From the NCBI GenBank assembly GCA_028824295.1, contig JAPPED010000019.1, positions 1 to 60,245 of the forward strand: a stretch of 60,245 bases of DNA. Reading direction: 5' to 3'. The translations under genes and the position numbers were made by a program. The DNA comes from Rhodospirillales bacterium (GTDB lineage Bacteria; Pseudomonadota; Alphaproteobacteria; TMED109). The notes beneath the pieces are model-generated. The model was not told the DNA's origin. It saw nothing but the letters and a program-made list of their open reading frames with translations, and made no database searches. Shown piece after piece: positions 45,869-59,466 of the stretch (positions are counted from its first letter, which is position 1; each line of letters begins with the position of its first letter).

Positions 45869-46968
45869 CCTTCACCTGCCCCGTGCCGGCGGAACGCATC
45901 GCGCTCGGCGAATGCCACGGACTTGACGAGGGCATACAGCTCCAGGCCGACCTTGAGCGACAGATCGTCGGCCGACCGGCGAGTGATCCGTGCATGGATC
46001 GTCTGCCCCGAGTCGATGCTCACGTCGACATGCCCATCGCCTCTCGGATGGATCCCTGTGACCGTGCCAGGCAGCACGTTCATCACGCTGGAGCGTTGCG
46101 GCGGTTCGAGCGCGAGCGAGACGTCGCGGGCCAGGATTCGGAGCGCCAGCGGCGCGCCCTCGGCACGGTCGGTGCGGGGGACCAGCAGCGTGTGTTCGCC
46201 GAAGCGGAGTGCGCTCAGGTAATCGTCGTCGAAGTGACCCGCCACCGTGGTCAGCAGAATGGTGCCGGCGTCACGCCGGTCATTGAGCACGGGCAAGTCC
46301 GGGCGCGCCATGACGTCCTGGATGGGGCCGCAGGCGAGGACGGTGCCGTTCGCCATCACGGCGAGATGATCGGCCAAGCGAATGATCTCCTCGATCGAAT
46401 GGGTGATGTACACGGTCGGGACGCCGGTGTCGGCCGCGAGCCGCTCGAGGTGGGGCAGGACGTCATCACGCCGCTGTTGGTCCAGCGACGACAGGGGTTC
46501 GTCCATGATCAGGAGATCGGGGCCGCTGAGCAGGGCGCGGCCGATGGCGACCCGTTGCGCCTCGCCGCCGGAAAGGTGCCGCGTGCGCCGGTCCAGCAGC
46601 GGCTCCAGCCCCAGCAGGCCGACCACCTGTTCGAAGGCGTCCGGGCTGGCCGCGCCACGCCGGCGGCCACCGAAGTGCAGATTGGCCCGGACGTTCATGT
46701 GCGGAAAGAGACGCGCCTCCTGGAAGACGTAGCCGATCCGTCGACGTTCCGGAGCCACCGCCACGCCGCGCGCACTGTCGAACAGGACGGTCTCGCCGAT
46801 CGCGATTCGACCGGCGTCCGGTCGGATCAGGCCGGCGATCGCGTCGGCGACGGTCGACTTGCCGGCGCCGGATGTGCCGAACAGGCCGGTTACGCCACTG
46901 TCCGGCACTTGCATGCTCACGTCCAGCGAAAAGCTGCCCTGCCGGTGCGAGAAGGCGACGTCGATCAT
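45865..46968 (-). CDS. modC: Molybdate ABC transporter ATP-binding protein
   Basis: A 367-residue ATPase: Walker A GTSGAGKST (about 31-39), Q-loop VFQEARLFPHM, signature LSGGEAQRVAIGRAL and Walker B LLIMDEPLSSLD. A C-terminal TOBE/Mop-like domain (about 295-355, VLPGTVTGIHPRGDGHVDVSID) can bind molybdate and mediate trans-inhibition. This is the canonical ModC layout. It overlaps modB by 4 bp upstream and the ThDP enzyme gene by 4 bp downstream. Confidence 0.95.
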   Translation of the reverse strand: MIDVAFSHRQGSFSLDVSMQVPDSGVTGLFGTSGAGKSTVADAIAGLIRPDAGRIAIGETVLFDSARGVAVAPERRRIGYVFQEARLFPHMNVRANLHFGGRRRGAASPDAFEQVVGLLGLEPLLDRRTRHLSGGEAQRVAIGRALLSGPDLLIMDEPLSSLDQQRRDDVLPHLERLAADTGVPTVYITHSIEEIIRLADHLAVMANGTVLACGPIQDVMARPDLPVLNDRRDAGTILLTTVAGHFDDDYLSALRFGEHTLLVPRTDRAEGAPLALRILARDVSLALEPPQRSSVMNVLPGTVTGIHPRGDGHVDVSIDSGQTIHARITRRSADDLSLKVGLELYALVKSVAFAERDAFRRHGAGEG

Positions 46969-47657
46969 GGTCCGCCGCTCGAATAGTGCCGCGTGCGGCG
47001 CGCGAGCCATTCAGAGCCGATGAGCGCGATCATCGCCAGCGTGATGGAGATGACCACCAGCCGCGTGGCCTGGGCCTCGCCGCCGGGAACCTGGGCGGCC
47101 GCGTACAGCGCCAACGGCAGGGTTCGGGTCTCGCCGGGAATGCTGGACACGAACGTGATGGTGGCACCGAATTCGCCGAGCGAGCGCGCGAAGCTGAGCA
47201 CCATGCCCGCGAACACGCCCGGAGCAATGAGGGGCAGGGTCACGGTGCAGAACGCGTTGGCCGGGCTCGCGCCGAGCGTCCGCGCGGCCTGCTCCAGTCG
47301 CCGGTCCACGCCTTCAATCGATTGCCGGATCGCACGCAGCATGAGCGGAAACGCCACGATCGCGCTGGCGATGGCCGCGCCCTGCCAGGTGAAGCCGAGG
47401 GTGATCCCGAAGACGTTCTCCAGAAACACGCCGCCCGGGCCGCGCCGCCCGAGGAACACCAGCAGGAGATAGCCGATCACGACCGGCGGCACGACCAATG
47501 GGATGTGCAGGATGCCGTTCAGCAACGCATGGCCGGGGAAGCGCGTGCGTGCCAGCAACCAGGCGATGGCGATGGCCGGGGGCAGGCTGCCCAGAACGCT
47601 CCATACGGCGACCCGCAGGGACAGCAGCAGCGCTTCGGTTTCAGCGGGTGTCGGCAT
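46965..47657 (-). CDS. modB: Molybdate ABC transporter permease
   Basis: A 230-residue inner-membrane protein with five to six helices and the ABC permease coupling motif in ARTLGASPANAFCTVTLPLIAPGV. EFGATITFVSSIPGETRTLPLALY is diagnostic of ModB. The ATG at 47657 overlaps the end of modA by 17 bp. It forms the transmembrane channel for molybdate delivered by ModA. Confidence 0.95.
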   Translation of the reverse strand: MPTPAETEALLLSLRVAVWSVLGSLPPAIAIAWLLARTRFPGHALLNGILHIPLVVPPVVIGYLLLVFLGRRGPGGVFLENVFGITLGFTWQGAAIASAIVAFPLMLRAIRQSIEGVDRRLEQAARTLGASPANAFCTVTLPLIAPGVFAGMVLSFARSLGEFGATITFVSSIPGETRTLPLALYAAAQVPGGEAQATRLVVISITLAMIALIGSEWLARRTRHYSSGGP

Positions 47658-48531
47658 CGAGTGGAGGTACGAATCCGTGGCTGGAAAAGATGGTCTGAGC
47701 GGCGTCCGATTGCAGGAACGCAAGAAACGCCGAGGCAGCGGCCGGGGCCGGCGCGTCGGCCAGCTGGGCGACCCAATAGGCTATGGGATCGTGCAGTTCA
47801 GGGGAAAAGACCCCGAGGACCCGTATCTCTGCTGTGTTGCGCGCGTCCGTCCAATAGACGATTCCCAGAGGCGCTTCGTGCCGCCGCACCAGAAGCGTGG
47901 CATGGCGCACATCGCTGGCTGGCGCGACCCGCGCCTGGAGCCGGTCCCACATTCCAAGCGATTCCAGGGCCTGCCGCGCATAGATCCCGGCCGGGACTGA
48001 AACGGGATCGGCGACGGCGAGTCGACCGCCGTCCAGCATGGCTTCGACGTCCAGCGAGATATCCATGTCCACCGGTTCGAAATCCGTATCCGAAGGTGCC
48101 ACCAGCGCGAGGCGGTTGCGGAAGAGGAGGGTGCGGCTTCCGGCAGACAGGAGCCCGGCGTCATCGACCCGGTCCATCCAAGCGGTATTGGCCGACAGGA
48201 ATAGGTCGGCCGGCGCGCCCGATTCGATCTGGCGAGCCAAGGCACTGGTCGCGGCCAGAGAGAAGCGCACGCGTCCACCACCGACAGCGGCATAAGCGTT
48301 GGCAACTTCTTCGAGGGCAGTGCCGGTCGAAGCGGCAGCGAACACCAGGATTTCCTGGCCGGCAACCGGTCCGGCCGCCGGCCCCCCTTGCGTAAAGGGG
48401 GCCGGGACCGAAACCAATCCGAGGAGGGTGAGGCAGGCGACCGGCCATCGGGGGATCCACTCGGCGGAATTCCGATGGGCCTCGGGCCGCTGGCGCCACG
48501 CGCTTATTATATACGACAGAATATATTGCAT
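47641..48531 (-). CDS. modA: Molybdate-binding protein ModA (start unresolved)
   Basis: The periplasmic binding protein is clear from QEILVFAAASTGTALEEV, SLAATSALARQIESGAPADLFLSA, DPVSVPAGIYARQAL and the C-terminal FLQSDAAQTIFSSHGF. A hydrophobic PVACLTLLGLVSVPAP segment precedes the mature part. The only in-frame ATG (48531) lies inside the -35 of the proposed promoter, and the first residues it would encode are the ModE-box-like sequence itself. Downstream, no ATG or GTG is in frame; a TTG at 48417 would remove the signal peptide. A non-standard initiator (ATC just before PRWPVAC) or a small sequence error is possible. Coordinates use the ATG. Confidence 0.85.
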   Translation of the reverse strand: MQYILSYIISAWRQRPEAHRNSAEWIPRWPVACLTLLGLVSVPAPFTQGGPAAGPVAGQEILVFAAASTGTALEEVANAYAAVGGGRVRFSLAATSALARQIESGAPADLFLSANTAWMDRVDDAGLLSAGSRTLLFRNRLALVAPSDTDFEPVDMDISLDVEAMLDGGRLAVADPVSVPAGIYARQALESLGMWDRLQARVAPASDVRHATLLVRRHEAPLGIVYWTDARNTAEIRVLGVFSPELHDPIAYWVAQLADAPAPAAASAFLAFLQSDAAQTIFSSHGFVPPLDADTR

Positions 48532-48536
48532 TGCAA
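48504..48536 (-). promoter_or_regulatory. modABC promoter with ModE-box-like inverted repeat
   Basis: In a GC-rich background this short block is almost pure A/T. On the minus strand a -35 TTGCAA (48536-48531) and a -10 TATATA (48513-48508) are 17 nt apart. The two TATAT half sites (48508-48513 and 48522-48527) form an imperfect inverted repeat like the TATATA-spacer-TATATA core of the ModE site. A modE-type gene lies directly upstream. Repression of modABC when Mo is plentiful is inferred. Confidence 0.6.
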
Positions 48537-48778
48537 GCTCTGCCTGACCTCTACTCCGAACCACCGCCAACCAAGGGCCTCGGATCTGGAAGGCGCATCG
48601 TTTTCCGGACGATAGACCTTGCGTCGCAGGTCGGCTGCTGCGGTGACCGTGATGCACCTGTCAGGCGCCTCACCGGATACAGGGCGGCCCGCAGGGTCGC
48701 ATCGTGTCCACGCGCTGGCAGCATCAAGCGCAGGTTATATCCAGCTGGGCGGATCGCACTGCAGGCCCCGGCAGGTTC

Positions 48779-49159
48779 CTATTCCGGCTCGCCCGCAACC
48801 GACGGACCGGGTTCGGCGGCGACCATGGACTGGAGGTCTGCCAGCGGTTTGCCGGCGGCGCGGGCGGCATCGACCTCCACCGCATGGTAGGCAGCGAGCA
48901 CGCGTCGCCCGAGGTCGGTGACGCGTGAGCCGCCAACGCCGCGGCCACCGGGACTCGCGGCCACGAGTGGGCCCGTGAAGTTCCGGTTCATCGAATCGAC
49001 CAGCAGCCAGGCCCGCCGGTACGACATACCGAGGGCTCGGGCAGCGCCGGCGATCGAGCCCACCTCGTCGATCGCCGTGAGCAGGGCAGCCTTGCCGGGC
49101 CCGAACAGCGGCAGGTCTCCCAACTGGACCCGGATTCGGATTCGCGCTTCGGTATTCAC
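48779..49159 (-). CDS. modE: ModE-type winged-helix regulator lacking molbindin domains
   Basis: A 126-residue DNA-binding protein: RVQLGDLPLFGPGKAALLTAIDEVGSIAGAARALGMSYRRAWLLVDSMN is the ModE N-terminal winged helix, followed by the GGRGVGGSRVTDLGRRVLAAYHAVE wing. Full ModE (about 260 residues) carries two Mop domains that bind molybdate; this one ends after the DNA-binding part, so the Mo signal must come from elsewhere (for example a separate molbindin) or sensing differs. It is the last gene of the 12-gene overlapping run and lies 247 bp upstream of modA. ATG at 49159 overlaps the DUF192 stop. Confidence 0.88.
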   Translation of the reverse strand: MNTEARIRIRVQLGDLPLFGPGKAALLTAIDEVGSIAGAARALGMSYRRAWLLVDSMNRNFTGPLVAASPGGRGVGGSRVTDLGRRVLAAYHAVEVDAARAAGKPLADLQSMVAAEPGPSVAGEPE

Positions 49160-49638
49160 TGGCCGGGGCCGCGTTCGGCGTCAAAGTGAGGATGACGCAC
49201 ACGGTCGCCGGGGCGCAGGCCAAGCCGTTCCGAGGTTCCCGCCAGGACTTCCAGGACACCGTTCACGTAGACGTCAGGGCCGATCGGCGTGAGCGACAGC
49301 GGGATGGTGTCTTCCGCGATCGCGGCGATGGTGCCGTCAGGCCGAATGAACAGCATGTCCAGCGGGATGTAGGTGTCCTTCATCCACATCCGGATGCGCT
49401 GCGGCGGCGCATACAGGAACAGCATGCCCTCGTTCTCGCCGAGCGTGAGGCGGTGCATCAGGCCTTGCCGCTGCTGCGCCTGCGTCACGGCCAGCTCCAC
49501 CTGAAACTGATGCCGTTCTGCTCCCGATTGAATCTCGACGGTGCCGACCTGGAACGTCTCGGCCGCTGCCGTCGTTGGCGCGAGCAGCAGCGCCAGCATC
49601 AACAGCCGCGCTGCCGGCCGTCTGCCGCCTCCCTTCAT
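49156..49638 (-). CDS. Secreted DUF192 protein
   Basis: A 160-residue exported protein. A clear signal peptide (ARLLMLALLLAPTTAAA, cleavage before ETF) starts at the ATG at 49638. The DUF192 domain follows (QRQGLMHRLTLGENEGMLFLY, RIRMWMKDTYIPLDMLFI, IAAIAEDTIPLS). The family is widespread and its function is unsettled. It overlaps metC upstream and modE downstream by 4 bp each. Confidence 0.9.
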   Translation of the reverse strand: MKGGGRRPAARLLMLALLLAPTTAAAETFQVGTVEIQSGAERHQFQVELAVTQAQQRQGLMHRLTLGENEGMLFLYAPPQRIRMWMKDTYIPLDMLFIRPDGTIAAIAEDTIPLSLTPIGPDVYVNGVLEVLAGTSERLGLRPGDRVRHPHFDAERGPGQ

Positions 49639-50834
49639 CCCGTCCGGCTCCCCAGGTGCGCAAACCCCGCTTCCAGATCGTCCTGAAGGTCGGCCACGTC
49701 TTCCAATCCGGCATGGACGCGGAAGGTCCGCTCGGGCGCGGGCCACGGCGCGACGTCGCGCGCGCCCCGGAGCATCGACGGGACGATGAGACTCTCGAAG
49801 CCGCCCCAGCTGTAACCCATGCCGAACAACTCGAGCCCGTCCAGAAAGGCATCGTAGGCTGCCGGCGGGGCCGGTCGGAGGATCATGCCGAAGAGTCCGG
49901 ATGCCCCCAGGAAGTCGCGCCGCCAGAGCGCGTGTCCGGGGTCTCCCTCGAGGCCGGGATGCAGTACGCGCTCCACCTCGGGCCGGTCAGACAGCCAACG
50001 GGCCAGCGCAAGCCCGGATTCCATATGGCGCCGGAGACGGACGTCCAGTGTGCGCAGTCCGCGCAGCCCCAGGTACAGGTCGTCTGGTCCGACGGTGGCG
50101 CCCAGAGCTTGGGCGGTCTTGCGCACGACGACGTGGGTTTCCTCGGTCGTCGTGACCGCCCCCAGCATGACGTCGGAATGTCCCGACACGTACTTCGTCG
50201 CCGCCTGTATCGACACGTCGACACCGTGCTCGAACGGTCGGAAGAACAGCGGGCTCGCCCACGTGTTGTCGAGGATCACCGTGCAATCGCGCGCGTGTGC
50301 GGCCGCCGCGATACCGGGCACGTCCTGCACCTCGAACGTGTGCGAGCCGGGCGATTCGAGAAACACCACCCGCGTGTTGTCGCGGATCTGCGCCGCGATC
50401 CCGGCCCCGATGCAGGGGTCATAAAAGGTGGTCTCGACCCCGAACCGCGCCAGCCAGCCGTTGGCCATGCTGCGCGTGGGTCCGTACGCCGAATCGACCA
50501 TCAAGAGGTGGTCCCCGGCGGCGAGGAAGCTGCTCAGCGCGACCGCGACGGCGGTCTTGCCGGAACCCACGGCAACGCTGCGTGCGCCGCCTTCCGTGGC
50601 GGCCATCGCTTCTTCGAAGGCAAAGGTCGTCGGGGTGCCAAAGCGGCCGTAGACGACGTCGTCCAATCGGTTGGGGCCACGGGTGCGCAGGTCCGCGGTG
50701 TCCCTGAACAGGATGGTCGAGGCATGGTACACGGGCGGATTGACAGCGCCCCGGTTCTCGTGGGGATTTCGGCCGGCGCGGCCCAGAACCGTTGCCGGAC
50801 GGCGCTTGCGCTTGTCAGGGCGTGACCGGGACAT
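49635..50834 (-). CDS. metC: Cystathionine beta-lyase (Cys/Met metabolism PLP enzyme)
   Basis: A 399-residue PLP enzyme. The cofactor Lys214 is in QAATKYVSGHSD and the ring-binding Asp189 is in VILDNTWASP. NRGAVNPPVYHASTILF and YGRFGTPTTFAFEEAM support the MetC subgroup, which cleaves cystathionine to homocysteine, pyruvate and ammonia. A C-S lyase for other thioethers is also possible. Start ATG 50834; it overlaps sseA by 20 bp. It belongs to the sulfur block sseA-cysK within the long operon. Confidence 0.9.
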   Translation of the reverse strand: MSRSRPDKRKRRPATVLGRAGRNPHENRGAVNPPVYHASTILFRDTADLRTRGPNRLDDVVYGRFGTPTTFAFEEAMAATEGGARSVAVGSGKTAVAVALSSFLAAGDHLLMVDSAYGPTRSMANGWLARFGVETTFYDPCIGAGIAAQIRDNTRVVFLESPGSHTFEVQDVPGIAAAAHARDCTVILDNTWASPLFFRPFEHGVDVSIQAATKYVSGHSDVMLGAVTTTEETHVVVRKTAQALGATVGPDDLYLGLRGLRTLDVRLRRHMESGLALARWLSDRPEVERVLHPGLEGDPGHALWRRDFLGASGLFGMILRPAPPAAYDAFLDGLELFGMGYSWGGFESLIVPSMLRGARDVAPWPAPERTFRVHAGLEDVADLQDDLEAGFAHLGSRTG

Positions 50835-51663
50835 CCTCGCGCCCTCCCCACTCCGACCACGAGCCGTCGTAGACCGCCCAGTCATCGCGACCGGTCAGCG
50901 TGAGGCCAAGGGCAAGAGTGCAGGCGCTGACTCCGGACCCGCAGGTGAACACCGGCGGCCGATCGTCGGCAACGCCAGCCGCGTCCAGGCGCGCACGCAG
51001 CGCCTCGAGGGGTAGCATGCGAGGGCCGTTCAGCAGGGTCTGGTAGGGAAGGTTTACGCTTCCGGGGATATGTCCGCCTCGAAGTCCGGACCGCGGCTCC
51101 GCCTCGGTGCCGGCGAACCGGCCGGCGCTCCGCGCGTCCACCACCAGTTCGGTCGCCGCCTGCAGGTTGGCGCGAACGGCTGCCAGGTCCCGGATCCGCG
51201 CCGGGTTGAGCTTGGCCTGGAAGGCGCGGGGCCACGGTCGGGCCGGGCCCTTGACCAAGGTGCCGCCGACGGCGGTCCACGCCGGCAGTCCTCCGTCGAG
51301 TACCGAAACGCGTTCGTGGCCGAACAGCCGGAACATCCACCATGCGCGCGGGGCGGTGCCGATGCCATCCGTCGCATAACAGACGACATGATCGCCGGCA
51401 CTGGCGCCAAGGCCCCCGACGGCCGCAGCGAACGCTTCGGCGGTCGGCACCATGTGGGGCAGCGTTGAATCCGGGTCAGCGATCCCGTCGATCGAGAAAA
51501 ACGCGGAGCCGGGGATGTGGCCGAGCTCGAATTCGCTCGCGCCGTCTCGTCGGGTCGCCGGCATATGCCAGGAGGCGTCCAGCACCACCACGTCGGGTCG
51601 CTCGTACGCGTCGCGCAGCCACTCTGCGCTTACCAGCGGGGACGCAGACGTGCGGTCGGGCAC
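50815..51663 (-). CDS. sseA: 3-Mercaptopyruvate sulfurtransferase
   Basis: A 282-residue protein with two rhodanese domains. The second carries the catalytic loop CGSGVSA (about Cys240), the mercaptopyruvate type (CG[S/T]GV) rather than CRKGV of thiosulfate rhodaneses. The first, inactive domain has YATDGIGTAPR. It transfers sulfur from 3-mercaptopyruvate to cyanide or thiols. GTG start at 51663, 1 bp after the cysK stop. With cysK and metC it forms a cysteine-metabolism unit. Confidence 0.92.
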   Translation of the reverse strand: MPDRTSASPLVSAEWLRDAYERPDVVVLDASWHMPATRRDGASEFELGHIPGSAFFSIDGIADPDSTLPHMVPTAEAFAAAVGGLGASAGDHVVCYATDGIGTAPRAWWMFRLFGHERVSVLDGGLPAWTAVGGTLVKGPARPWPRAFQAKLNPARIRDLAAVRANLQAATELVVDARSAGRFAGTEAEPRSGLRGGHIPGSVNLPYQTLLNGPRMLPLEALRARLDAAGVADDRPPVFTCGSGVSACTLALGLTLTGRDDWAVYDGSWSEWGGREDVPVTP

Positions 51664-51664
51664 G

Positions 51665-52693
51665 TCACGTTCCTCCTTCCAGCCACGGCGGGACCGGGAG
51701 GCCGCGCTCGGTCAGGAAGGCCGGGTTGAAGATCTTTGAGGCGTACCGGGTGCCATGGTCGCACAGCATGGTGACCACCACGTGCCCGCGCCCGAGGTCC
51801 CGGGCCACGCGTTCGGCACCCGCAATATTGATTCCCGTGGATCCTCCGAGCAGGAGCCCCTCTTCGACCGCCAATGCATAGATGACCCGAAGTGCCTCTT
51901 CGTCCGTCACCCGCAATGAGTCATCGATGCGCGCACCCTCGAGGTTGCCGGTTACCCGCCCCTGCCCGATTCCCTCGGTGACCGAGGTGCCTTCCGCCTT
52001 CGGGGTGCCCGTTTGCACCCAAGCGTGCATCCCCGAGCCCGTGGGGTCAGCGAGCACCACCTTCACGTCCGGATTCCGGTCCTTCAGCCCGTCCGAGACG
52101 CCGGCAATCGTTCCGCCGGTGCCGATGGCACTCACGAACGCCGCGACTTTCCCGCCGGTCTGGTCCCAGATCTCCGGTGCCGTGGATACCCGGTGCGCCT
52201 GGCGGTTCACCGGGTTGTCGAACTGGTTGGCCCAGACGGCCCCGTTGGGCAGGGTGTCGGCGAGTTCCGCGGCGAGTTGGCCGGAGTAGCGGATGTAGTT
52301 GCCCGGGTTCGAGTACGGGACGGCCGGCACCAGGCGGAGGCTGGCGCCGATTGTCCGGAGGGCACTTATCTTCTCCTCGCTCTGCGTCTCCGGCATCACG
52401 ATGACCGTACGGTAGCCCAAGGCGCTCCCGATCACGGTCAGACCGATCCCGGTATTCCCGGCAGTTCCCTCGACGATGGTGCCGCCCGGCCGCAGCAGGC
52501 CGCGCTTCTCGGCGTCGCGGATAATCCAGAGCGCCGCCCGGTCCTTGATGGATTGGCCAGGATTGAGGAACTCGGCCTTGCCCAGGATTTCGCAACCTGT
52601 CTCGTCCGACAGCCGCCTCAGGCGGATGAGCGGCGTGTTGCCGACGAGGTCTACGACACTCGACGCGGGTGAACCAGCGGGCACGGGCTTCAT
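51665..52693 (-). CDS. cysK: Cysteine synthase (O-acetylserine sulfhydrylase family)
   Basis: A 342-residue fold-type II PLP enzyme: Lys50 in NPGQSIKDRAA, GTAGNTGIGLT (Asn-binding loop), the phosphate-binding GTGGTIAG and a late GGSTGINIAGA. It should make cysteine from O-acetylserine and sulfide. The GQSIKDRAALWII variant differs from the common GGSVKDR and belongs to a CysK-like branch also found in fungi and alphaproteobacteria. The ATG at 52693 overlaps the ABC permease stop by 4 bp, placing it in the transporter operon. Confidence 0.9.
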   Translation of the reverse strand: MKPVPAGSPASSVVDLVGNTPLIRLRRLSDETGCEILGKAEFLNPGQSIKDRAALWIIRDAEKRGLLRPGGTIVEGTAGNTGIGLTVIGSALGYRTVIVMPETQSEEKISALRTIGASLRLVPAVPYSNPGNYIRYSGQLAAELADTLPNGAVWANQFDNPVNRQAHRVSTAPEIWDQTGGKVAAFVSAIGTGGTIAGVSDGLKDRNPDVKVVLADPTGSGMHAWVQTGTPKAEGTSVTEGIGQGRVTGNLEGARIDDSLRVTDEEALRVIYALAVEEGLLLGGSTGINIAGAERVARDLGRGHVVVTMLCDHGTRYASKIFNPAFLTERGLPVPPWLEGGT

Positions 52694-53541
52694 CCTCCAG
52701 CCGGCGGACCGCCGCCGCCCGGCCGACGGCGGAGCATTCCGCGCTGTGGGTCGTAACCAAGGACGGCTGCGGCGAGGAACACGATCGTGCAGGCCACCGT
52801 GACGATCAAGCTGTGCCAGTGAATCTGGCCCTGGCTGGCCCAGCGCACGAGCTCAACCCCGTACGTGAACGGATTGAACTGGGCCAGCCACCATACGATT
52901 TCGGCACCGTTTTCCAGCAGGCGCCACAGCGGGTACAGCGCGCTGGAGATGAAGAACATCGGGAAGATTACGAAGTTCATGGTGCCGGCGAAGTTCTCGA
53001 GTTGGCGAATGTGGACGGACAACGCCAGGCCCGCGGCTCCCAGCAGCAATCCGAACAGCACCGCGGCAGGGAACATCCAGACCCAGCCGAGCAGGGGGGT
53101 GTTCAGGCTGATCTGCATGCCAATCAGCGGCAGGCACACGATCAGGAACACGTACACCTGAAGAATCGAGAGCATGGTGCCCGCGAACAGTTTGGCGGTC
53201 AGCAGGTACCAGCGGGGCAGCGGTGCCGTAAGGAGCAGCCGCATGACGCCCATTTCACGGTCGTACACCATCGACAGGGACGACTGCATCCCGCTGAACA
53301 GCAGCACCATGCCGACGAGACCGGGAACGATGTACTCGAAGTAGTTCACGCTCTGCACCGGATAGGGGCTCACCATCCCGGGGTCGATCCCCTTCGTGGA
53401 GCCGATGCCGGCGGCGAACACGAACAGCCAGAGCGCCGGGCGGACAAAGGCCGACAACAGGCGCCCGCGCTGCTGGAAGAATTTCACGACCTCGCGGGCG
53501 GTAAGCCCGACGAGGGCACGTAGCGCGTGACTGGCTGTCAT
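52690..53541 (-). CDS. ABC-2 type permease of the PQQ-alcohol-associated (Ped/Lut-like) transporter
   Basis: A 283-residue ABC-2 membrane protein with six helices: YFEYIVPGLVGMVLLFSGMQSSLSMVYDREMGVMRLLLTAPLPRWY, VWMFPAAVLFGLLLGAAGLALS and the late NFVIFPMFFISSALYPL. It is the expected permease for the ATPase at 55746-56519. This gene order (ATPase, beta-propeller, binding protein, permease) is the one found with PQQ-dependent alcohol dehydrogenases. The homologous LutF in Methylorubrum and the Pseudomonas Ped system are linked to lanthanide uptake. ATG at 53541. Confidence 0.85.
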   Translation of the reverse strand: MTASHALRALVGLTAREVVKFFQQRGRLLSAFVRPALWLFVFAAGIGSTKGIDPGMVSPYPVQSVNYFEYIVPGLVGMVLLFSGMQSSLSMVYDREMGVMRLLLTAPLPRWYLLTAKLFAGTMLSILQVYVFLIVCLPLIGMQISLNTPLLGWVWMFPAAVLFGLLLGAAGLALSVHIRQLENFAGTMNFVIFPMFFISSALYPLWRLLENGAEIVWWLAQFNPFTYGVELVRWASQGQIHWHSLIVTVACTIVFLAAAVLGYDPQRGMLRRRPGGGGPPAGG

Positions 53542-54749
53542 GTCGGCTGCTCTGGCGTTGCAAACTTGCTGCAATCGCTGGTTCGCTCGTCCCGGCCCAG
53601 CGTGTCGAGATCATTGATTTGATGCACGAAACCGGCGAGCGGAGCGACTGCGGTTACCCAGTCCTCCGTCGCCAGCATAATCGGTTGGCGAAGTTGTCCG
53701 TTCCAGGGACGGAATGACAGCGCCGGTCCCTTTGAGCCGTCGAGGCGAAATTCGGGTCCGAGCAGGTAGGCGTGAACATCGCCGCGCTCGGTGGAGCCGC
53801 TCCGCACGATGGCCTCGCCGATGGCGCGGATCGCTACCCAGGCCGCCCAGTCACCGCTCTCCATGCGACGGCCGGTCTGGCGTTCGAAGCGGCCGTGGAC
53901 CTGCGGCGCTCCGTGCCGGAGATAGCTCCAGTGCCATGGCGTTGGACGCAGTCCCGCCGCGCCGGTGACGGCGGCCGGGTCCTGGGTTGAGTAGGGGACG
54001 GAACGGGCAAACTCGCGGTCGACGTCGGCGACGAAGACTGCCTCGTAGTCGGCGCGGCCCGTCAGCAGGTCGAGATCATTGCGATCCCGCATCCGCGGGT
54101 CGTTGGACAGCACGAAGGTCCGTTCCTCGTCGATCTTGAGGCCGTAGGTGCTGGCCGAGTGTCGGAAGGCCTCAACCATCCGCGCGTCTTCCTCCAGCGG
54201 CCCCTGCAGCACCAGGACTTCGTTCCAGTCCCGGGCAATCAGGTACTGGGCTGCTGCATCCGTGAGCATTTGCCGACTGGGCGTGGTGTGAAGGAGGTGC
54301 GCCTCGCAGGCTTCCCCGCGCAAACGGTCATCCACGGCAGATACGTTGATCAGAATGACGTCCCGGCCGATCGTCGCTGCCGCCAGTTCACGAAGCGCCG
54401 CCGCAGGTGCGTCGACGAGAAAAACGAAGGCCCCGGTTTCGGCCCGGATGGCGTCAAGGGCGGCCGGGAGTTCATTCGCGTCGGCGACCCGTTCGGCCCG
54501 CAACGCGAACTGCACACCGGCGCGACGTCCGAAGGACCGGATATCGCTCACGCCCATTTCGGCCCCGGCCAGCGGACGGCGATCGATCCGATTGGTTTCC
54601 GAGCGGATATCCACCGGATGGACACCCCACTGCGAGTAGCGAATGTCTTCGGCGAGATCGAGATAGCCGAACGCGAAGACGGGCCGTTCCTCGGCTGCTG
54701 CTGCCGAGCTGAGCAGTAGTGCCGCCAACAGGCAGGCGGCCCCGCGCAT
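53538..54749 (-). CDS. Periplasmic binding protein, PQQ-alcohol-associated ABC system (LutA/PedA2-like)
   Basis: A 403-residue exported protein with signal peptide CLLAALLLSSAAAA. It has the bilobal branched-chain-amino-acid-binding fold: FAFGYLDLAEDIRYSQWGVHP, GAFVFLVDAP, LHTTPSRQMLTDAAAQYLI, DWNEVLVLQGP and YEAVFVADVDREFARSVPY. The opening segment and the GxHPVDIR stretch fit the family that accompanies PQQ alcohol dehydrogenases. In lanthanide-using methylotrophs the homologue LutA belongs to the Ln transporter. It may bind a metal chelate rather than an amino acid. The start is the ATG at 54749; a GTG lies four codons upstream. Confidence 0.82.
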   Translation of the reverse strand: MRGAACLLAALLLSSAAAAEERPVFAFGYLDLAEDIRYSQWGVHPVDIRSETNRIDRRPLAGAEMGVSDIRSFGRRAGVQFALRAERVADANELPAALDAIRAETGAFVFLVDAPAAALRELAAATIGRDVILINVSAVDDRLRGEACEAHLLHTTPSRQMLTDAAAQYLIARDWNEVLVLQGPLEEDARMVEAFRHSASTYGLKIDEERTFVLSNDPRMRDRNDLDLLTGRADYEAVFVADVDREFARSVPYSTQDPAAVTGAAGLRPTPWHWSYLRHGAPQVHGRFERQTGRRMESGDWAAWVAIRAIGEAIVRSGSTERGDVHAYLLGPEFRLDGSKGPALSFRPWNGQLRQPIMLATEDWVTAVAPLAGFVHQINDLDTLGRDERTSDCSKFATPEQPT

Positions 54750-54768
54750 TGGTGATGTCACGATGGCG

Positions 54769-55746
54769 TCAGTCCCGAATTCGAACGGTGTGCGGCGTGC
54801 GCCCCACTGCAACCGAACGGATGGCACGGTTTGCCTCGGTGTCGATCACGGAGATGTCGTCGCTGGCCCCGTTGGTCACCACCAAGATGGAATCATCCGC
54901 CGTCAGGGCCGCGCCCCAGACGCGACTTCCGGCAAGGATATAGGCCTCGACGGTGCGCGTGGCGACATCGACGCGCGCAACATGCCAGGCACGGCCGAGC
55001 GTGACGAAGGCGGTTGTTCCATCCCTGGTCATGACCAGATCAACGGGTGTGATGTCGGCTTCGCGTAGCCCTTTCTTCTCGAAGCTGATCGTATCGGTGA
55101 CCTGCAGGGATTCCGTGTCGATCACGCTGACGGTTCCCCCGAGCTCGTTGGTGACCCAGTACTCGCGTCCGTCTGGGGTGAAGGTGCCTCGCCGTGGCCG
55201 GTTGCCCACCAGAACGTCAGCCAGGATGACTCCTTCCCATGGGTCGATGACGGCAATCGTGTTGGTGGCTTCCGCAGTGACAAACACGCGTTTGCCGTCC
55301 GGAGTGAACCGCACCCCTTCCGGTTCGATTCCGACGTCCTCGATGACGGTTCGAATGGTACCGCTGGCAACGTCGATGACCGTCGCTTCGGCGTCGTCCT
55401 CGTTGGAAACGACGAGGATTTCGCCGCTGGGGTCGATATCAAACAGTTCGGGGTCGTCGCCGGTGTCGATGTAGCCGGTGATGGTCTTCGTTTCGAGATC
55501 GAGCACCTCGATGCGGTCGGCTTCGCTTGCGGCGATCAGCAGTTCGCTGCCGTCCGGACTGAAGCGCATGTCGCGGGGGCGACCGCCGGTTTCGATCACG
55601 TGCTGAATCTCGAGCGAGTCGGAATCGAGCACCACCACCGTGTCGTTGCCCTCATTGCTCACGTAGATTTCGCCGCAATGCGCGGAGAGCGCAACTCCCA
55701 GCGCAAATGTCAGCGTCGCCGGTCCCGTCACGAACCACCTGGGCAT
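54769..55746 (-). CDS. Exported YVTN-type beta-propeller protein (PQQ-catabolism associated)
   Basis: A 325-residue protein with a signal peptide (TLTFALGVALSAHCG) and seven beta-propeller blades of the YVTN type. Repeats such as EIYVSNEGNDTVVVLDSDSL, RPRDMRFSPDGSELLIA, PEGVRFTPDGKRVFVT and REYWVTNELGGTVSVID occur about every 42 residues. This is the propeller found with the PQQ-alcohol ABC genes (LutD-like position). The lumen or top face could bind a metal or chelate; acidic patches (DDAEATVIDVASG) are seen. It shares one base with the ATPase stop, and a 19-bp gap follows. Confidence 0.85.
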   Translation of the reverse strand: MPRWFVTGPATLTFALGVALSAHCGEIYVSNEGNDTVVVLDSDSLEIQHVIETGGRPRDMRFSPDGSELLIAASEADRIEVLDLETKTITGYIDTGDDPELFDIDPSGEILVVSNEDDAEATVIDVASGTIRTVIEDVGIEPEGVRFTPDGKRVFVTAEATNTIAVIDPWEGVILADVLVGNRPRRGTFTPDGREYWVTNELGGTVSVIDTESLQVTDTISFEKKGLREADITPVDLVMTRDGTTAFVTLGRAWHVARVDVATRTVEAYILAGSRVWGAALTADDSILVVTNGASDDISVIDTEANRAIRSVAVGRTPHTVRIRD

Positions 55747-56519
55747 CAGGGTGTCTCCTTCGTCTGACTGTTCGTCGTGAAATGTACCAGCGTGTCGTGA
55801 AGGTTGGAAAGACCGGCTCGACTTACCAGTTCCGCCGGTTCGCCCGCCTGCCGGATCGTGCCCCGGTGCAGCATGATCACGTGGTCGGCGACCTCCGCCT
55901 CGTCGACCAGGTGTGTCGCCCACAGCACCGCCATCGACCGCTCGCGCTTGAGTTGGAGGACATATTCCAGGAGGTCACTGCGGCTGGGCGGGTCCAGGCC
56001 GACGGTCGGCTCGTCCATCAGCAGAATGCTGGGCTCGTGCAGGAGGGAGCGCGCGAGTTCGACGCGGCGGCGCTGGCCGCCCGAGAGGCTGCGGGCGCGG
56101 TCGTCGATGCGGTCTTCAAGGTCGACCTGACGGAGTTCATGCTCGGTGCGCTGGCGAATCTCGGACCTGCTGAGACCATGCAAGCGCCCGTGGAACGCGA
56201 GGTTCTCGCGCACCGTCAGATCAAGGTCGAGCGTGGCCTGCTGGAAAACGAAGCCGATCGACGAGAGGGCCTTGACGGCCTCTCGCCGCATGTCAAAGCC
56301 CTGCACGTGCACGGTCCCCGAATCGGGCACGAACAGACCGGCAAGCAGCTGGAAGAGCGTGGTCTTGCCGGCACCGTTGGGACCGAGCAGCGAAACGTAC
56401 TGGCCGGGTTCGATGGCGAACGACACGCCCTTGAGAGCGGGCCGGTTGCCGTAGCTCTTGGAGACCTTCTGGATCACGAGAAGCGGTTGGGTGCCCGTGG
56501 CGGTTTCAGGTGCGGTCAT
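55746..56519 (-). CDS. ABC ATP-binding protein of the PQQ-alcohol-associated transporter (LutE/PedA1-like)
   Basis: A 257-residue ATPase: Walker A GPNGAGKTTLF, Q-loop FVFQQATLDLDLTVRENL, signature SLSGGQRRRVELARSL, Walker B ILLMDEPTVGLDP and a switch histidine in WATHLVDEAE. It is of the ABC-2 class, partnered with the permease at 52690-53541. The gene lies between the NitT/TauT-type ATPase (4-bp overlap) and the beta-propeller gene. The energising role for this second transporter is inferred from order. Confidence 0.9.
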   Translation of the reverse strand: MTAPETATGTQPLLVIQKVSKSYGNRPALKGVSFAIEPGQYVSLLGPNGAGKTTLFQLLAGLFVPDSGTVHVQGFDMRREAVKALSSIGFVFQQATLDLDLTVRENLAFHGRLHGLSRSEIRQRTEHELRQVDLEDRIDDRARSLSGGQRRRVELARSLLHEPSILLMDEPTVGLDPPSRSDLLEYVLQLKRERSMAVLWATHLVDEAEVADHVIMLHRGTIRQAGEPAELVSRAGLSNLHDTLVHFTTNSQTKETP

Positions 56520-57319
56520 GGAGTCGAAGATCCGGAGTCGGTCGTGGAGCCCGCGGTGCCGGCGAGCAGGCCACCGTGCCGGTCGAGAAGACCGGTGCGA
56601 AAGGTGTTGATGACGGGGCTGTCGGGGGTGCGCGGACGGGGCAGGTCAACCGCCGCATCGTGCACCACACTCGAAGGCGGTTGCGACAGGAACAGGATCC
56701 GGTCGCCCAGGTAAATTGCCTCGTTCAGGTCGTGGGTTACGAACAGCACGGTCGTCGGCTGGGCCTGCCAGAGGTCAAGGAGGATCTCGCGCAACCGGTT
56801 GCCAACCGGCTGGTCGAGCGAGACGAACGGCTCATCGAGCAGCAGGAGCGCCGGGCGGATGGCAAAGGCGCGGGCGAGTGCAACGCGGCGGCGCTGGCCG
56901 CCGGAGAGACGGGTCGGATAGGCATCCAGATAGCTCCCGAGCTCCATGCGCTCCAGCAGTTTGACGCCGCGGCCGTCGGCGCGGGCCGGAGGGTCAAGCA
57001 CGATGTCTACGTTGTCACGGACGCTCATCCAGGGGAGCAGGCGCGGCGTCTGGAACATGTAGCTGACCGCGGGGCGGGTCTGCGTGCTCTGGCTGTGGAT
57101 GTCAACGGCGCCGTCGACCTCGCTATCGAGTCCCGCGGCGATGTTGAGGAGGGTGGTTTTCCCGCAGCCGGACGGGCCAAGGAGGCAGCAGAACTGGCCG
57201 ACCGGAACGGTGAACTGCAGGTTCTCGATCGCGGTGTGCGGCGGCGTCCGGCCATCTCCTGCGAACCGCTTGCGGCGGATGTCGACGGTCAATCCTGCTG
57301 TTAACGCCACCGGGTGCAC
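56516..57319 (-). CDS. NitT/TauT-type ABC ATP-binding protein
   Basis: A 267-residue ATPase: Walker A GPSGCGKTTLLN, Q-loop MFQTPRLLPWMSVRDNV, signature RLSGGQRRRVALARAF, Walker B LLLLDEPFVSLD, D-loop and THDLNEAIYLGDR. The QTPRLLPW Q-loop is typical of nitrate/sulfonate/taurine importers. The GTG at 57319 overlaps the permease by 19 bp; a second GTG lies three codons later. Confidence 0.9.
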   Translation of the reverse strand: MHPVALTAGLTVDIRRKRFAGDGRTPPHTAIENLQFTVPVGQFCCLLGPSGCGKTTLLNIAAGLDSEVDGAVDIHSQSTQTRPAVSYMFQTPRLLPWMSVRDNVDIVLDPPARADGRGVKLLERMELGSYLDAYPTRLSGGQRRRVALARAFAIRPALLLLDEPFVSLDQPVGNRLREILLDLWQAQPTTVLFVTHDLNEAIYLGDRILFLSQPPSSVVHDAAVDLPRPRTPDSPVINTFRTGLLDRHGGLLAGTAGSTTDSGSSTP

Positions 57320-58101
57320 CGCCGTTCCAGTGGCGCCATGACACCATATTCGACCGCCATCATCACCACGACGAACGCGAGCGTATAGGCGAGAACCGCA
57401 GCGATGTCGAACAGCTGGAAGAACTCATGGAGCTTGAATCCGACGCCGTTGCTCCGGCCCAGCAGCTCCACTACCAGGACGATCTTCCAGATCAGGGCGA
57501 TGCCGCCACGCGCGGCGGCCATGATGTAGGGGTACAGTTGCGGCAGGAAGAAGCGCAGGAAGGTGGTTCGCCGGTCGACCCGGAACACCCGCGCCACGTC
57601 CAGGAGTTCCCGGTCGACGGCCCGGGTGCCTTCCCGCACGGTGACTACGACGTTCGGGATCTTGTTGAGCGCCACCGCGACGATGGCGGCGACCTCGGTG
57701 AGGCCGAACCAGACGTAGCAGAGAATGATGAGGACCAGCGCCGGCATGTTGAGGAACAGGATGTGCCAGCCGTCGAGGATGATGTCCGCCCGTCGCCTCG
57801 CCCCCATCAGGATGCCGAGCGCCACCCCGATCACCATCGCCCCGAAAAACGCCGCCGCCACGCGCCAGAGCGTGACACTCAGGTGGTAGAGGAGACCTTC
57901 TTCGTTCAGGTGATACCACATCGTGTCGAGCACGACCCAGGGCGCCGGCAGGACTTGGCCGGACGGGTCGGCAAGAGTCGCGAGGCTCCAGACGCAAAGC
58001 AGCAGGACGAACGAGAAGATCCGCAGCGCGGCCGGTCCACCGGCGGCGCGACGCAGTCGCTCCCACGCGGTGGCGGCGACGTCTACGGTGCCGACTGCCA
58101 C
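57301..58101 (-). CDS. NitT/TauT-type ABC permease
   Basis: A 266-residue inner-membrane protein with six predicted helices (ALRIFSFVLLLCVWSLATL, LYHLSVTLWRVAAAFFGAMVIGVALGILMG, ILFLNMPALVLIILCYVWFG, AAVLAYTLAFVVVMMAVEYGVM). The coupling loop is DVARVFRVDRRTTFLRFFLPQLYPYIMAAARGGIALIWKIVLVVELLG. It belongs to the binding-protein-dependent importer group for nitrate, sulfonates or thiamine precursors. GTG start at 58101, inside the end of the binding-protein gene. Confidence 0.9.
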   Translation of the reverse strand: MAVGTVDVAATAWERLRRAAGGPAALRIFSFVLLLCVWSLATLADPSGQVLPAPWVVLDTMWYHLNEEGLLYHLSVTLWRVAAAFFGAMVIGVALGILMGARRRADIILDGWHILFLNMPALVLIILCYVWFGLTEVAAIVAVALNKIPNVVVTVREGTRAVDRELLDVARVFRVDRRTTFLRFFLPQLYPYIMAAARGGIALIWKIVLVVELLGRSNGVGFKLHEFFQLFDIAAVLAYTLAFVVVMMAVEYGVMAPLERRCTRWR

Positions 58102-59072
58102 AGGGTGCCGTCCGCCATTTCAGGGTCCTTCCCAACCAGCGTCCGCCCGCCGATGTCGGCGAGAACGGCGAACGCTCTGTGAATGGCATCACTCGAATCC
58201 TTGGTCGGGTCGGGGATGCCGGCGCGGAATGCATCGCGGAGCGCATGCAACATCGCGTCGTCCTTGGCGCCGGTCCGTTTCCGGATGCGCTCCCATTCGC
58301 CGTCGTCAGCCGCCAGGATGCTGCGAGCGTCCCGCGTGGCAGCGAGGAAGCCGTTGAGCGCATCCGGGTTGGCACGCGCCCACGCTTCGCTGAAGACGTA
58401 GCCGATGAGGGGCAGGGTGTCGCCGACGCCCAGGCTTGGCAACACGTCCGGGACGGGAAGAATTTCCCGCATGCCTTGGGCACGCAGGCGCGCCGTGAAG
58501 TTCCAGAACGTGAGCACGGCATCCAGGTCTTCCCTGAGGAGCATCTGGTTGAGTAGGGGTGGGGCTCCGAACGACAGCTCCGCCGTGTCCGCCATGTCGC
58601 GACCGGCCGTCTTGAGACCAAACGCGCGCACCATCAGCCAGCTCTTGTCAATCGAGCTTCCCACGACTCCCAAGCGCCGTCCGCCGGCTAGTAGATCGTC
58701 CACGGTCTCGATGCCGCTGTCGGGATGGGCCATGATGCTTCCCGCGGCATTGGAATACGGGATCAACGTGAAATCCTTGCCAGCCCGACGCTGGCGGCTG
58801 ACCCAGATCCAGTCGGTGACGATGATGTCGGCGGCATCCGAGAGGAGCGCGATCGCCGTCGCATCCTTGTTGGTCAGTGGAACGATCTCAAGGTCGAGCC
58901 CGTGCAGGTCATCGAGGCCGTGGTGCTGGACGACGTCGAGTTCCCAGTTCACGGTGCCGAACTTGAGCACGGCAACCCGGACCGTGTCCGTCGCTGCGGC
59001 CGCGGTCGCGAGGCATGCTTGCAGCGCGCAGATCAATGCCGCCAACACGGCTGGGCGGAGCGAGAAAGGCAT
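58083..59072 (-). CDS. NitT/TauT-type (NMT1-like) periplasmic binding protein
   Basis: A 329-residue exported protein with signal peptide LAALICALQACLATAAAA and a type II binding fold: VRVAVLKFGTVNWELDVVQHHGLDDLHGLDLEIVPLTNKDATAIALLSDAADIIVTDW, RRLGVVGSSIDKSWLMVRAF. DxxxTDWIW at the hinge is characteristic of the NMT1/SsuA superfamily. The ligand is unknown. It is the first gene of the overlapping run down to modE. Candidate ligands from the operon include a sulfonate, a metallophore or a cofactor precursor. Confidence 0.88.
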   Translation of the reverse strand: MPFSLRPAVLAALICALQACLATAAAATDTVRVAVLKFGTVNWELDVVQHHGLDDLHGLDLEIVPLTNKDATAIALLSDAADIIVTDWIWVSRQRRAGKDFTLIPYSNAAGSIMAHPDSGIETVDDLLAGGRRLGVVGSSIDKSWLMVRAFGLKTAGRDMADTAELSFGAPPLLNQMLLREDLDAVLTFWNFTARLRAQGMREILPVPDVLPSLGVGDTLPLIGYVFSEAWARANPDALNGFLAATRDARSILAADDGEWERIRKRTGAKDDAMLHALRDAFRAGIPDPTKDSSDAIHRAFAVLADIGGRTLVGKDPEMADGTLWQSAP

Positions 59073-59466
59073 CGGCGGAATCTTTCGAAACGTACTGTGA
59101 GGGAACGGGTACCGTTCGGTGACCGAATCGGTCTATATTTGTAAGGCAACATAGCGGTTCGGGCCAAAGGAGCGAATCGGTTTCGGTCCGGGCGCGCTGC
59201 CCGGACAGTCGGCGAAGGGGTTGACTCGGCTGCGATCCGCGGGCATTCTTGATTGCCTTGCCCTCGCGAAAACGAGGGCAGCGCGGCTTCGCGCGCGCTT
59301 TTTGACAGATGAAGATGAAAAGAGATGCGCAGGCGACGGCGTGTTGCGTGATCAACACGACACCGACGCAGTGCGCATCGACGGCCGGCATCGATTCGCG
59401 TCGATGCCGGAAGCTACGTGACGCATTGTGTCGGGTCACGGGTCCGGATTCCTAATCCGGACCACT
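59073..59466. other. Divergent region between the ABC binding protein gene and the rRNA operon
   Basis: A 394-bp gap without a gene. It holds two candidate rRNA promoters (given separately) and the hairpin GCCCTCG-CGAAAA-CGAGGGC (59260-59279). Directly after comes AGCGCG-N8-CGCGCT with a run of five T (59280-59303), a terminator-like structure in what would be the early rRNA leader. An AT-rich spot at about 59131-59150 (TCTATATTTGTAAGG) may serve the minus-strand ABC operon. Confidence 0.5.
59221..59249 (+). promoter_or_regulatory. Candidate rRNA operon promoter
   Basis: TTGACT (59221-59226) and CATTCT (59244-59249) are separated by exactly 17 nt upstream of the 16S gene. A second near-perfect -35, TTGACA, lies at 59302-59307 but its -10 region (GATGCG) is poor. 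The first pair is the better sigma-70 candidate; tandem promoters are usual for rRNA operons. Confidence 0.5.

What the first reader, a model, noticed from the sequence alone, without database searches (positions are those of the whole stretch)
48779..59072. Twelve overlapping genes join two ABC transporters, a cysteine block and a ModE-type regulator
From 59072 to 48779 every junction overlaps (19, 19, 4, 1, 4, 4, 20, 4, 4 bp) or has a gap of at most 19 bp (one 19-bp and one 1-bp gap). The unit encodes a NitT/TauT importer, a PQQ-alcohol-type ABC system with propeller, CysK, SseA, MetC, a secreted DUF192 protein and a DNA-binding ModE-like protein. Cotranscription is almost forced by this spacing. 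A link between metal uptake, thiol synthesis and Mo regulation in one unit is not something I recognise.
Basis: partly seen in the sequence, partly recalled or inferred. Interest (0 to 1): 0.7.

Follow-up and report, generated by a model that had tools for sequence, protein, structure and literature searches.

The report
PQQ-lanthanide import operon with cysteine genes
The row of overlapping genes is real and old: likely importers for the two parts of a rare-earth alcohol-oxidising cofactor (PQQ and the metal) were joined to an ordinary bacterial cysteine-gene cluster, and one order of Alphaproteobacteria has kept the join.

Summary
Confirmed: twelve genes, one strand, eleven junctions (overlaps 19, 19, 4, 1, 4, 4, 20, 4, 4; gaps 19 and 1 bp). 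Reinterpreted: the 'NitT/TauT' importer is PqqT-like (best PDB matches by sequence and fold are PqqT with PQQ bound). The 'PQQ-alcohol' ABC system is of the Lut/Ped type that imports lanthanides. CysK-SseA-MetC is a cluster also found in other Alphaproteobacteria. ModE goes with modABC, which follows on the same strand behind its own ModE box (48505-48528), the only strong box in the 60 kb. The join lutF-cysK/sseA is present in 24 of 24 lutF-bearing genomes of the order (28 searched; GC 28-70%) and falls in one clade of a lutF tree, while purH, a control gene, kept no neighbour and priA kept only one side. But in 12 of 12 low-GC loci a symporter gene on the opposite strand splits the row, so a single 12-gene unit is special to the window's genus, and an rRNA gene beside the row in many members leaves plain inherited synteny open. 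No mechanism joining lanthanide/PQQ uptake to cysteine metabolism is shown. A stable new combination of known modules, not a new kind of system.

The parts
58083..59072 (-). PqqT-like periplasmic binding protein (the 'NitT/TauT' SBP, called sbpN here), likely PQQ-binding
   Evidence: PF09084 NMT1; PDB 9b1u/9b1v and 9ooz, E 4e-53 and 1e-52; AlphaFold model pLDDT 92.2, Foldseek top 3 = PqqT, TM 0.82-0.83 by query and 0.90-0.91 by target, 35% id
57301..58101 (-). permease of the PqqT-type importer
   Evidence: PF00528; beside sbpN in 78 of 80 loci, the other two end there
56516..57319 (-). ATPase of the PqqT-type importer
   Evidence: ABC ATPase; none of the 25 NCBIfam families shown is over its cut-off; position
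55746..56519 (-). LutE/PedB-like ATPase
   Evidence: TIGR03864 310.9 bits, cut-off 302.25
54769..55746 (-). PedA2-like beta-propeller protein
   Evidence: TIGR03866 322.6 bits, cut-off 287.3; start
53538..54749 (-). LutA/PedA1-like substrate-binding protein
   Evidence: TIGR03863 391.3 bits, under cut-off 413.6; start
52690..53541 (-). LutF/PedC-like ABC-2 permease
   Evidence: TIGR03861 311.7 bits, cut-off 241.35; start
51665..52693 (-). cysteine synthase CysK (PRK10717 type)
   Evidence: NF007989 526.5 bits, cut-off 387
50815..51663 (-). SseA, 3-mercaptopyruvate sulfurtransferase, CGSGV stretch present
   Evidence: NF008557 254.4 bits, cut-off 250; alignment
49635..50834 (-). MetC, cystathionine beta-lyase
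   Evidence: TIGR01324 471.5 bits, cut-off 365.9; start
49156..49638 (-). DUF192 protein, N-terminal stretch looks like a signal peptide
   Evidence: PF02643; start; signal peptide by eye
48779..49159 (-). HTH-only ModE-like regulator (no molybdate-binding domain found)
   Evidence: TIGR00637 76.9 bits, under cut-off 98.5; one match in each of 21 of 28 order genomes
48505..48528 (-). ModE-box palindrome in the promoter region of modABC
   Evidence: matrix trained without this site scores 27.2; next best in the 60 kb 1.4; same place in relatives
47641..48657 (-). modA (true start uncertain: the ORF start lies upstream of the ModE box)
   Evidence: TIGR01256 173.1 bits, cut-off 62.5
46965..47723 (-). 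modB
   Evidence: TIGR02141 and NF006939 over cut-off
45865..47010 (-). modC
   Evidence: TIGR02142 over cut-off
59133..59156 (-). short palindrome upstream of the row; weak ModE-box resemblance; possible operator or promoter
   Evidence: second-best matrix hit of the window but score only 1.4; kept in 4 genomes of the genus compared, one base changed in L032
59470..60245 (+). 16S rRNA gene, divergent, cut by contig end
   Evidence: RF00177; also upstream of the row in 7 of 12 order loci searched

Best explanation
The row is three inherited modules placed head to tail. Module 1 (seven genes) supplies both parts of the cofactor of lanthanide-dependent PQQ alcohol dehydrogenases (XoxF type): a PqqT-type ABC importer that recaptures PQQ, and a Lut/Ped-type ABC importer for lanthanide. 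Module 2 is the alphaproteobacterial cysK-(alaX)-sseA-metC cluster. Module 3 is DUF192-modE followed by modABC, where the short ModE most likely represses modABC through the operator just downstream of modE. Modules 1 and 2 were joined in the ancestor of one alphaproteobacterial order and kept vertically; in the window's genus, which has no symporter gene there, the row reads as one unit from a promoter upstream of 59072, while modABC has its own. Shown: gene content, order, conservation, PqqT homology and fold, ModE box, a XoxF-like enzyme elsewhere in the genome. Inferred: transported ligands, a single transcript, ModE acting on that box. Not shown: a functional reason for the join.
For: PqqT by sequence and fold. 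Lut/Ped families with roles from passages of PMC7391723 and PMC6839425. Trio near lut genes or PQQ dehydrogenase and other quinoprotein genes in Alpha-, Beta- and Gammaproteobacteria. XoxF-like enzyme with DYD motif beside MoxJ-like, cytochrome and SoxYZ-like genes in the same genome; PqqC over cut-off in 24 of 28 order genomes. Join in 24 of 24 lutF loci, one clade with support 100/100. cysK upstream of sseA on the same strand in 11 of 16 loci read from other families of the class, none with lutF. ModE box unique in the window (27.2 against 1.4) and strong in the untrained relative L054 (28.1).
Against: No expression data. TIGR03863 and TIGR00637 scores are under their curated cut-offs. Nine of 28 order genomes have no PQQ alcohol dehydrogenase over cut-off; in G015 (91% complete), G018, G019 and G026 only weak hits, and in G010 (96%) the best listed is a 244-aa fragment, although all five carry lutF. 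The DYD pattern matched, within the order, only the six loci of the window's genus; the low-GC enzymes did not match my pattern, so their metal type is untested. The consensus scan finds no minus-strand sigma70 promoter, so the promoters are read by eye. The rRNA beside the row in many members allows synteny without function. Transport is untested in any member.
Confidence: 0.7

Rival explanations
1. The join is only inherited synteny at a stable place next to an rRNA gene and has no functional meaning; the genes stayed together because nothing broke them.
For: A 16S rRNA gene lies upstream of the row, divergently, in the window and in 7 of 12 other order loci searched: L030, L033, L034, L036, L038, L039 and L046. 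The kept row runs on into modABC, a TPP enzyme and an SDR gene. A reversed symporter gene splits the row in low-GC genera. priA also kept one side.
Against: Order members differ from 28 to 70% GC; purH kept no window neighbour in 10 of 10 low-GC loci and priA lost its other side in 7 of 7. Four g6 loci (L041, L043, L044, L045) show no rRNA in the stretch read yet keep lutF-cysK-sseA.
Confidence: 0.42
2. The join serves co-supply: sulfur/thiol metabolism is expressed with lanthanide and PQQ uptake because quinoprotein oxidation of alcohols needs sulfur carriers or thiols (SoxYZ-like carrier, glutathione-linked formaldehyde removal; the second link is recalled, not searched).
For: A SoxYZ-like carrier gene lies near the window genome's XoxF-like gene; a rhodanese gene is listed next to pedC in P. 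putida (PMC12997753, passages); sseA is present in 18 of 19 order loci, the one without it ending before that place, while cysK or metC is lost in some genera.
Against: The cys cluster occurs without lut in other families; I saw no paper joining the two in the listings; a separate PQQ-CXXCW rhodanese is over cut-off in six of seven genomes of the genus.
Confidence: 0.2
3. The first importer is a sulfonate/taurine or pyrimidine importer feeding the cysteine genes.
For: Weak SsuA_fam and NMT1 matches; 16 of 28 order genomes show no CysH/CysD-type protein (many are incomplete) and may need reduced sulfur.
Against: PqqT is far closer: phmmer E 4e-53 with no sulfonate binder listed; Foldseek 3e-31 against 9e-14 for SsuA and 3e-15 for Thi5; outside the order the trio goes with quinoprotein and lut genes.
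Confidence: 0.05

Closest known systems
PqqT of Methylorubrum (Methylobacterium) extorquens AM1 (PDB 9b1u, 9b1v, 9ooz)
   Same: Periplasmic binding protein of the same fold, 35% identity in the Foldseek alignment; Lys143 of the DKSW stretch, invariant in both my alignments, aligns with a Lys of PqqT.
   Different: Here joined to a lanthanide-type importer and to cysteine genes; PQQ binding untested.
LutABEF of M. extorquens (PMC7391723) and PedA1A2BC of Pseudomonas putida (PMC6839425)
   Same: The same kinds of protein in one block (order E-propeller-A-F here).
   Different: No TonB receptor in the row; the XoxF-like gene is on another contig; fused to the PqqT trio and to the cys block.
Alphaproteobacterial cysK-alaX-sseA-metC cluster
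   Same: Same genes and order, in part, in loci of other families.
   Different: Preceded by lutF; alaX not found in the 19 order loci; a reversed symporter gene inside in low-GC genera, absent in the window's genus.
ModE and modABC of E. coli type (box consensus recalled)
   Same: 24-bp palindrome over the promoter region of modABC; HTH domain of ModE.
   Different: Regulator lacks the molybdate-binding domain.
Methylotrophy island of TMED127/Methylaequorales (PMC12542740, abstract and passages)
   Same: Marine Alphaproteobacteria with lut and PQQ genes clustered.
   Different: There lut sits with xoxF and pqq genes; here with cys and mod genes. Whether the two orders are related was not tested.

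Membership tests
PqqT-type PQQ importer | homology of the binding protein to PqqT | tested here: met
PqqT-type PQQ importer | PqqT fold | tested here: met
PqqT-type PQQ importer | permease and ATPase beside it | tested here: met
PqqT-type PQQ importer | the PQQ-contacting residues of PqqT | not tested
   structure paper not held
PqqT-type PQQ importer | nanomolar PQQ binding | not testable with these tools
   needs a binding assay
Lut/Ped lanthanide ABC importer | LutE, LutF and propeller families over curated cut-offs | tested here: met
   TIGR03864, TIGR03861, TIGR03866
Lut/Ped lanthanide ABC importer | LutA/PedA1 family over curated cut-off | tested here: inconclusive
   TIGR03863 391.3 bits against 413.6, E 3.6e-117
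Lut/Ped lanthanide ABC importer | lanthanide transport | not testable with these tools
   needs growth or uptake assays
Lut/Ped lanthanide ABC importer | lanthanide-type PQQ dehydrogenase in the window's genome | tested here: met
   G000:C3:214552-216159 with DYD motif; the meaning of DYD is recalled
ModE repressor | ModE HTH domain | tested here: inconclusive
   TIGR00637 76.9 bits, E 9.5e-22, under cut-off 98.5
ModE repressor | molybdate-binding (TOBE/MOP) domain | tested here: not met
   126 aa, no second domain found
ModE repressor | ModE box at the modABC promoter region | tested here: met
   box consensus recalled
single 12-gene operon in the whole order | no oppositely oriented gene inside | tested here: not met
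   symporter gene reversed in 12 of 12 low-GC loci that reach past sseA

The most novel reading that the evidence does not exclude
PQQ itself works as a lanthanide carrier: the PqqT-type importer brings in PQQ-lanthanide complexes, which is why it is genetically tied to the Lut importer in Alpha-, Beta- and Gammaproteobacteria (lutF in 42 of the 80 nearest loci; the sample is biased to close relatives and many contigs are cut) and why PqqT could be solved with PQQ together with Gd3+ (9b1v). In this order the joint importer is further tied to cysteine/sulfane-sulfur supply as one cofactor-supply unit.
Probability: 0.15. Interest if true: 0.75.

Novelty: new variant of a known kind. Interest (0 to 1): 0.45.

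Why it matters
It gives a likely substrate to a transporter whose family labels say nitrate, sulfonate or taurine, shows that genes for PQQ salvage and lanthanide uptake often lie together, and offers a testable lead on how marine bacteria get the scarce parts of lanthanide enzymes: PMC12542740 (passages) says further scavenging strategies in seawater bacteria seem likely but are unknown. It also shows how operon spacing can mislead: a tight row in one genus is a split neighbourhood in its relatives.

Tried and rejected
Taurine/sulfonate or thiamine-precursor import for the first importer: rejected on PqqT homology. PQQ auxotrophy as the reason for the importer: not supported, PqqC is over cut-off in 24 of 28 order genomes; not found in G008, G010, G019, G027. 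Loss of the importer in G001, G002, G005 (no match): not so for G002 and G005, where the contig ends in or just after atpN; in G001 the permease match breaks off inside a longer contig, unexplained. ModE decoupled from molybdenum where modABC is missing from the row (g3, g6, g8): not supported, MoaA is over cut-off in G008, G011, G013, G015, G016, G021, G022 and G024. SseA as a stand-in for the PQQ-associated CXXCW rhodanese: weak, since six of seven genomes of the window's genus have that rhodanese (in G000 within 2 kb of the XoxF-like gene); the low-GC genomes have no match over cut-off. The site at 59133-59156 as a second ModE box: score only 1.4, its arms differ in spacing, and L054, L058 and L059 have no strong site upstream of sbpN; left open. 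Placing the order by name (AEGEAN-169/HIMB59 or TMED127): saw passages of PMC10308909 and abstract and passages of PMC12542740; not settled. Literature: in the listings of searches (one listed nothing) I saw no paper on lut or PqqT genes joined to cysK/sseA/metC; most listed papers were not opened, and the library lacks most subscription papers, including the PqqT structure paper I asked for. Rows dropped: two loci (L063, L090; L090 has sseA) with a stop in the lutF stretch were left out of the tree; L054 has no usable lutF.

Full report
WHAT IS THERE. The window is contig C19 of a 3.02-Mb genome (97.9% complete, 35 contigs). The row is longer than reported: modA, modB, modC and a TPP enzyme follow on the same strand, and a 16S rRNA gene begins about 400 bp upstream on the other strand.

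WHAT THE GENES ARE. NCBIfam and Pfam give: PF09084 binding protein, permease, ATPase; TIGR03864, TIGR03866, TIGR03863 (under cut-off), TIGR03861; CysK; SseA; MetC; DUF192; a 126-aa ModE HTH protein (TIGR00637, under cut-off, no molybdate-binding domain found); ModABC. The binding protein's best solved relatives are 9b1u/9b1v and 9ooz (E 4e-53 and 1e-52; profile E 4e-85 and 2e-84). An AlphaFold model from 22 sequences (pLDDT 92.2) has those three as its top Foldseek hits, named there as PqqT with PQQ bound (TM 0.82-0.83 by query, 0.90-0.91 by target, 35% identity), with Thi5, SsuA and TauA far behind. [quoted passage not shown] PMC12124388 (passages) places it in M. extorquens AM1 as a protein that recaptures PQQ. 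Lys143 (DKSW) is invariant in 14 and in 22 sequences and aligns with a Lys of PqqT; whether that is the Lys142 of the review I could not check (paper not held). The Lut and Ped systems serve lanthanide uptake (PMC7391723 and PMC6839425, passages). So genes 1-7 are best read as importers of PQQ and of lanthanide, the two parts of one cofactor.

DOES THE GENOME USE THEM. TIGR03075 PQQ alcohol dehydrogenases are over cut-off in 27 of 61 genomes searched, 19 of the 28 of the order. The window genome's C3:214552-216159 enzyme has the DYD motif that I recall as the lanthanide mark; my pattern matched 10 of 28 loci scanned, six of them from the window's genus and none from the low-GC members of the order. 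Near it lie MoxJ-like, cytochrome and SoxYZ-like genes. Against: nine of 28 order genomes have none over cut-off; in G015, G018, G019 and G026 only weak hits, though all four have lutF. PqqC is over cut-off in 24 of 28, so the importer is for salvage rather than sole supply.

IS THE ROW CONSERVED. In 61 genomes the binding protein was found in 27, strongly in 23. Of 20 stretches then read, 16 belong to the order; all 16 carry trio-lutE-propeller-lutA-lutF in order and then cysK or sseA. The four outside the order do not: in L042 the lut genes lie about 4 kb on in the other orientation, L040 has a lutE-like gene after the trio, L047 and L048 show none. A search of the order returned 28 genomes, the same 28 as for the family: lutF is strong in 24 and not found in G009, G012, G024, G025 (55-82% complete; only weak or no hits). 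In 24 of 24 the next row gene is cysK (17) or sseA (7). In a table of 19 order loci (the window itself not counted) sseA is in 18 and DUF192-modE in 17; the others end before. modABC follows in g1, g2, g5 and is missing from the row in g3, g6, g8, where modE is followed by the SDR gene that in the window lies beyond the TPP enzyme. cysK is missing in the g2/g5 loci, metC in the g3/g6/g8 loci.

CONTROL. Two other genes of the same window were searched in 28 genomes each and their flanks compared. purH keeps neither window neighbour in 10 of 10 low-GC family loci (one of them cut at a contig end). priA, in 7 low-GC loci with a real match, keeps w38323 in 6 and w37186 beyond it in 5, a side also kept in other families, and w41341 in none. 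Two genes are a small control, and priA shows that some neighbours do last.

RRNA. A 16S gene lies upstream of the row in 6 of 7 order loci searched and in one of five (L046, g8); four g6 loci show none in the stretch read. This keeps plain synteny at a stable place alive as a rival.

ONE OPERON OR NOT. In 12 of 12 low-GC order loci that reach past sseA a PF00375 symporter gene lies on the opposite strand between sseA and metC or DUF192. There the row cannot be one transcript. In the loci of the window's genus that gene is absent at this place and the genes overlap. L054 and L059, relatives with 50% and 47% GC, have the symporter too, and an AlaX-like tRNA-editing gene between cysK and sseA, so the fused form looks derived. 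G002 has metC split by an insertion with an IS1595-type transposase.

WHERE THE MODULES COME FROM. Families of neighbour representatives: PQQ dehydrogenase, SoxH-related hydrolase, MoxJ-like protein, CXXCW protein, PqqB, cytochromes c550. In a lutF tree of 41 rows the 11 labelled sseA rows fall in one clade of 13 (support 100/100) with the window and L058, a cut contig that does show cysK; the tool counts three label changes because those two rows carry no label. In 33 genomes of other families of the class sseA was found in 16; I read 16 stretches from 15 of them (the weak match in G035 and weaker paralogues were not read). In 11 of 16 cysK lies upstream of sseA on the same strand (6 with none of my query genes between, 5 with alaX between), metC on the same strand in 8, lutF in none (counted by me from the printed rows). 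So the cys block is ordinary and the join is the new part.

MODE. Between modE and modA the window's genus and genera g2 and g5 carry a 24-bp palindrome of the E. coli ModE type (consensus recalled); in g2/g5 it sits between a TTGACA and a TATATA 17 bp apart, read by eye. A matrix trained on five relatives' sites (one from the same genus) scores the window site at 27.2 against 1.4 for the next place in 60 kb, and the untrained relative L054 at 28.1. In the four modABC-less loci scanned (L039, L041, L044, L046) the best score is 7.4; single other hits in low-GC loci reach 11.8 (L037); L038 is missed because its site holds an N. So modABC most likely is its own unit under ModE. The consensus scan reports no minus-strand promoter.

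SULFUR. A CysH/CysD-type PF01507 protein is found in 12 of 28 order genomes, not in G007, G010, G011, G014, G015 (88-97% complete): these probably cannot reduce sulfate, yet keep sseA in the row. This hints at a lasting role for SseA, no more.

VERDICT. Observation confirmed, interpretation partly supported. The likely identity of genes 1-3 as a PQQ importer, and the frequent link of that importer to lanthanide genes, is the most useful result; the join to cysteine genes is stable, apparently of one origin, and unexplained.

Noticed in passing
L206:11142-13711 (G002): metC is split by a 2.6-kb insertion with an IS1595-type transposase and a DNA methylase-HNH ORF.
   Followed up: partly
L054:6500-7100: Propeller, lutA and most of lutF are missing between lutE and cysK; a 120-aa ORF with a short lutF match stays. 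Deletion or assembly fault.
   Followed up: no
L208 after 18600 (G001): The permease match stops inside a contig that goes on for about 24 kb; the 12.5 kb of it that I read (L208, L209) shows no further row genes. Rearrangement or misassembly.
   Followed up: no
order genomes G000-G027: Row loci of one family range from 28 to 70% GC and assemblies from 0.8 to 3.8 Mb.
   Followed up: partly
L298 (G054:C105): In another family cysK-sseA-metC and modABC lie on one 9-kb contig, so cys and mod blocks may be old neighbours.
   Followed up: no
L162, L163, L169: purH matches in G002, G005 and G034 contain one in-frame TGA.
   Followed up: no
window:59133-59156: A palindrome upstream of the row, kept in four genomes of the genus but for one base; could be an operator of the row.
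   Followed up: partly
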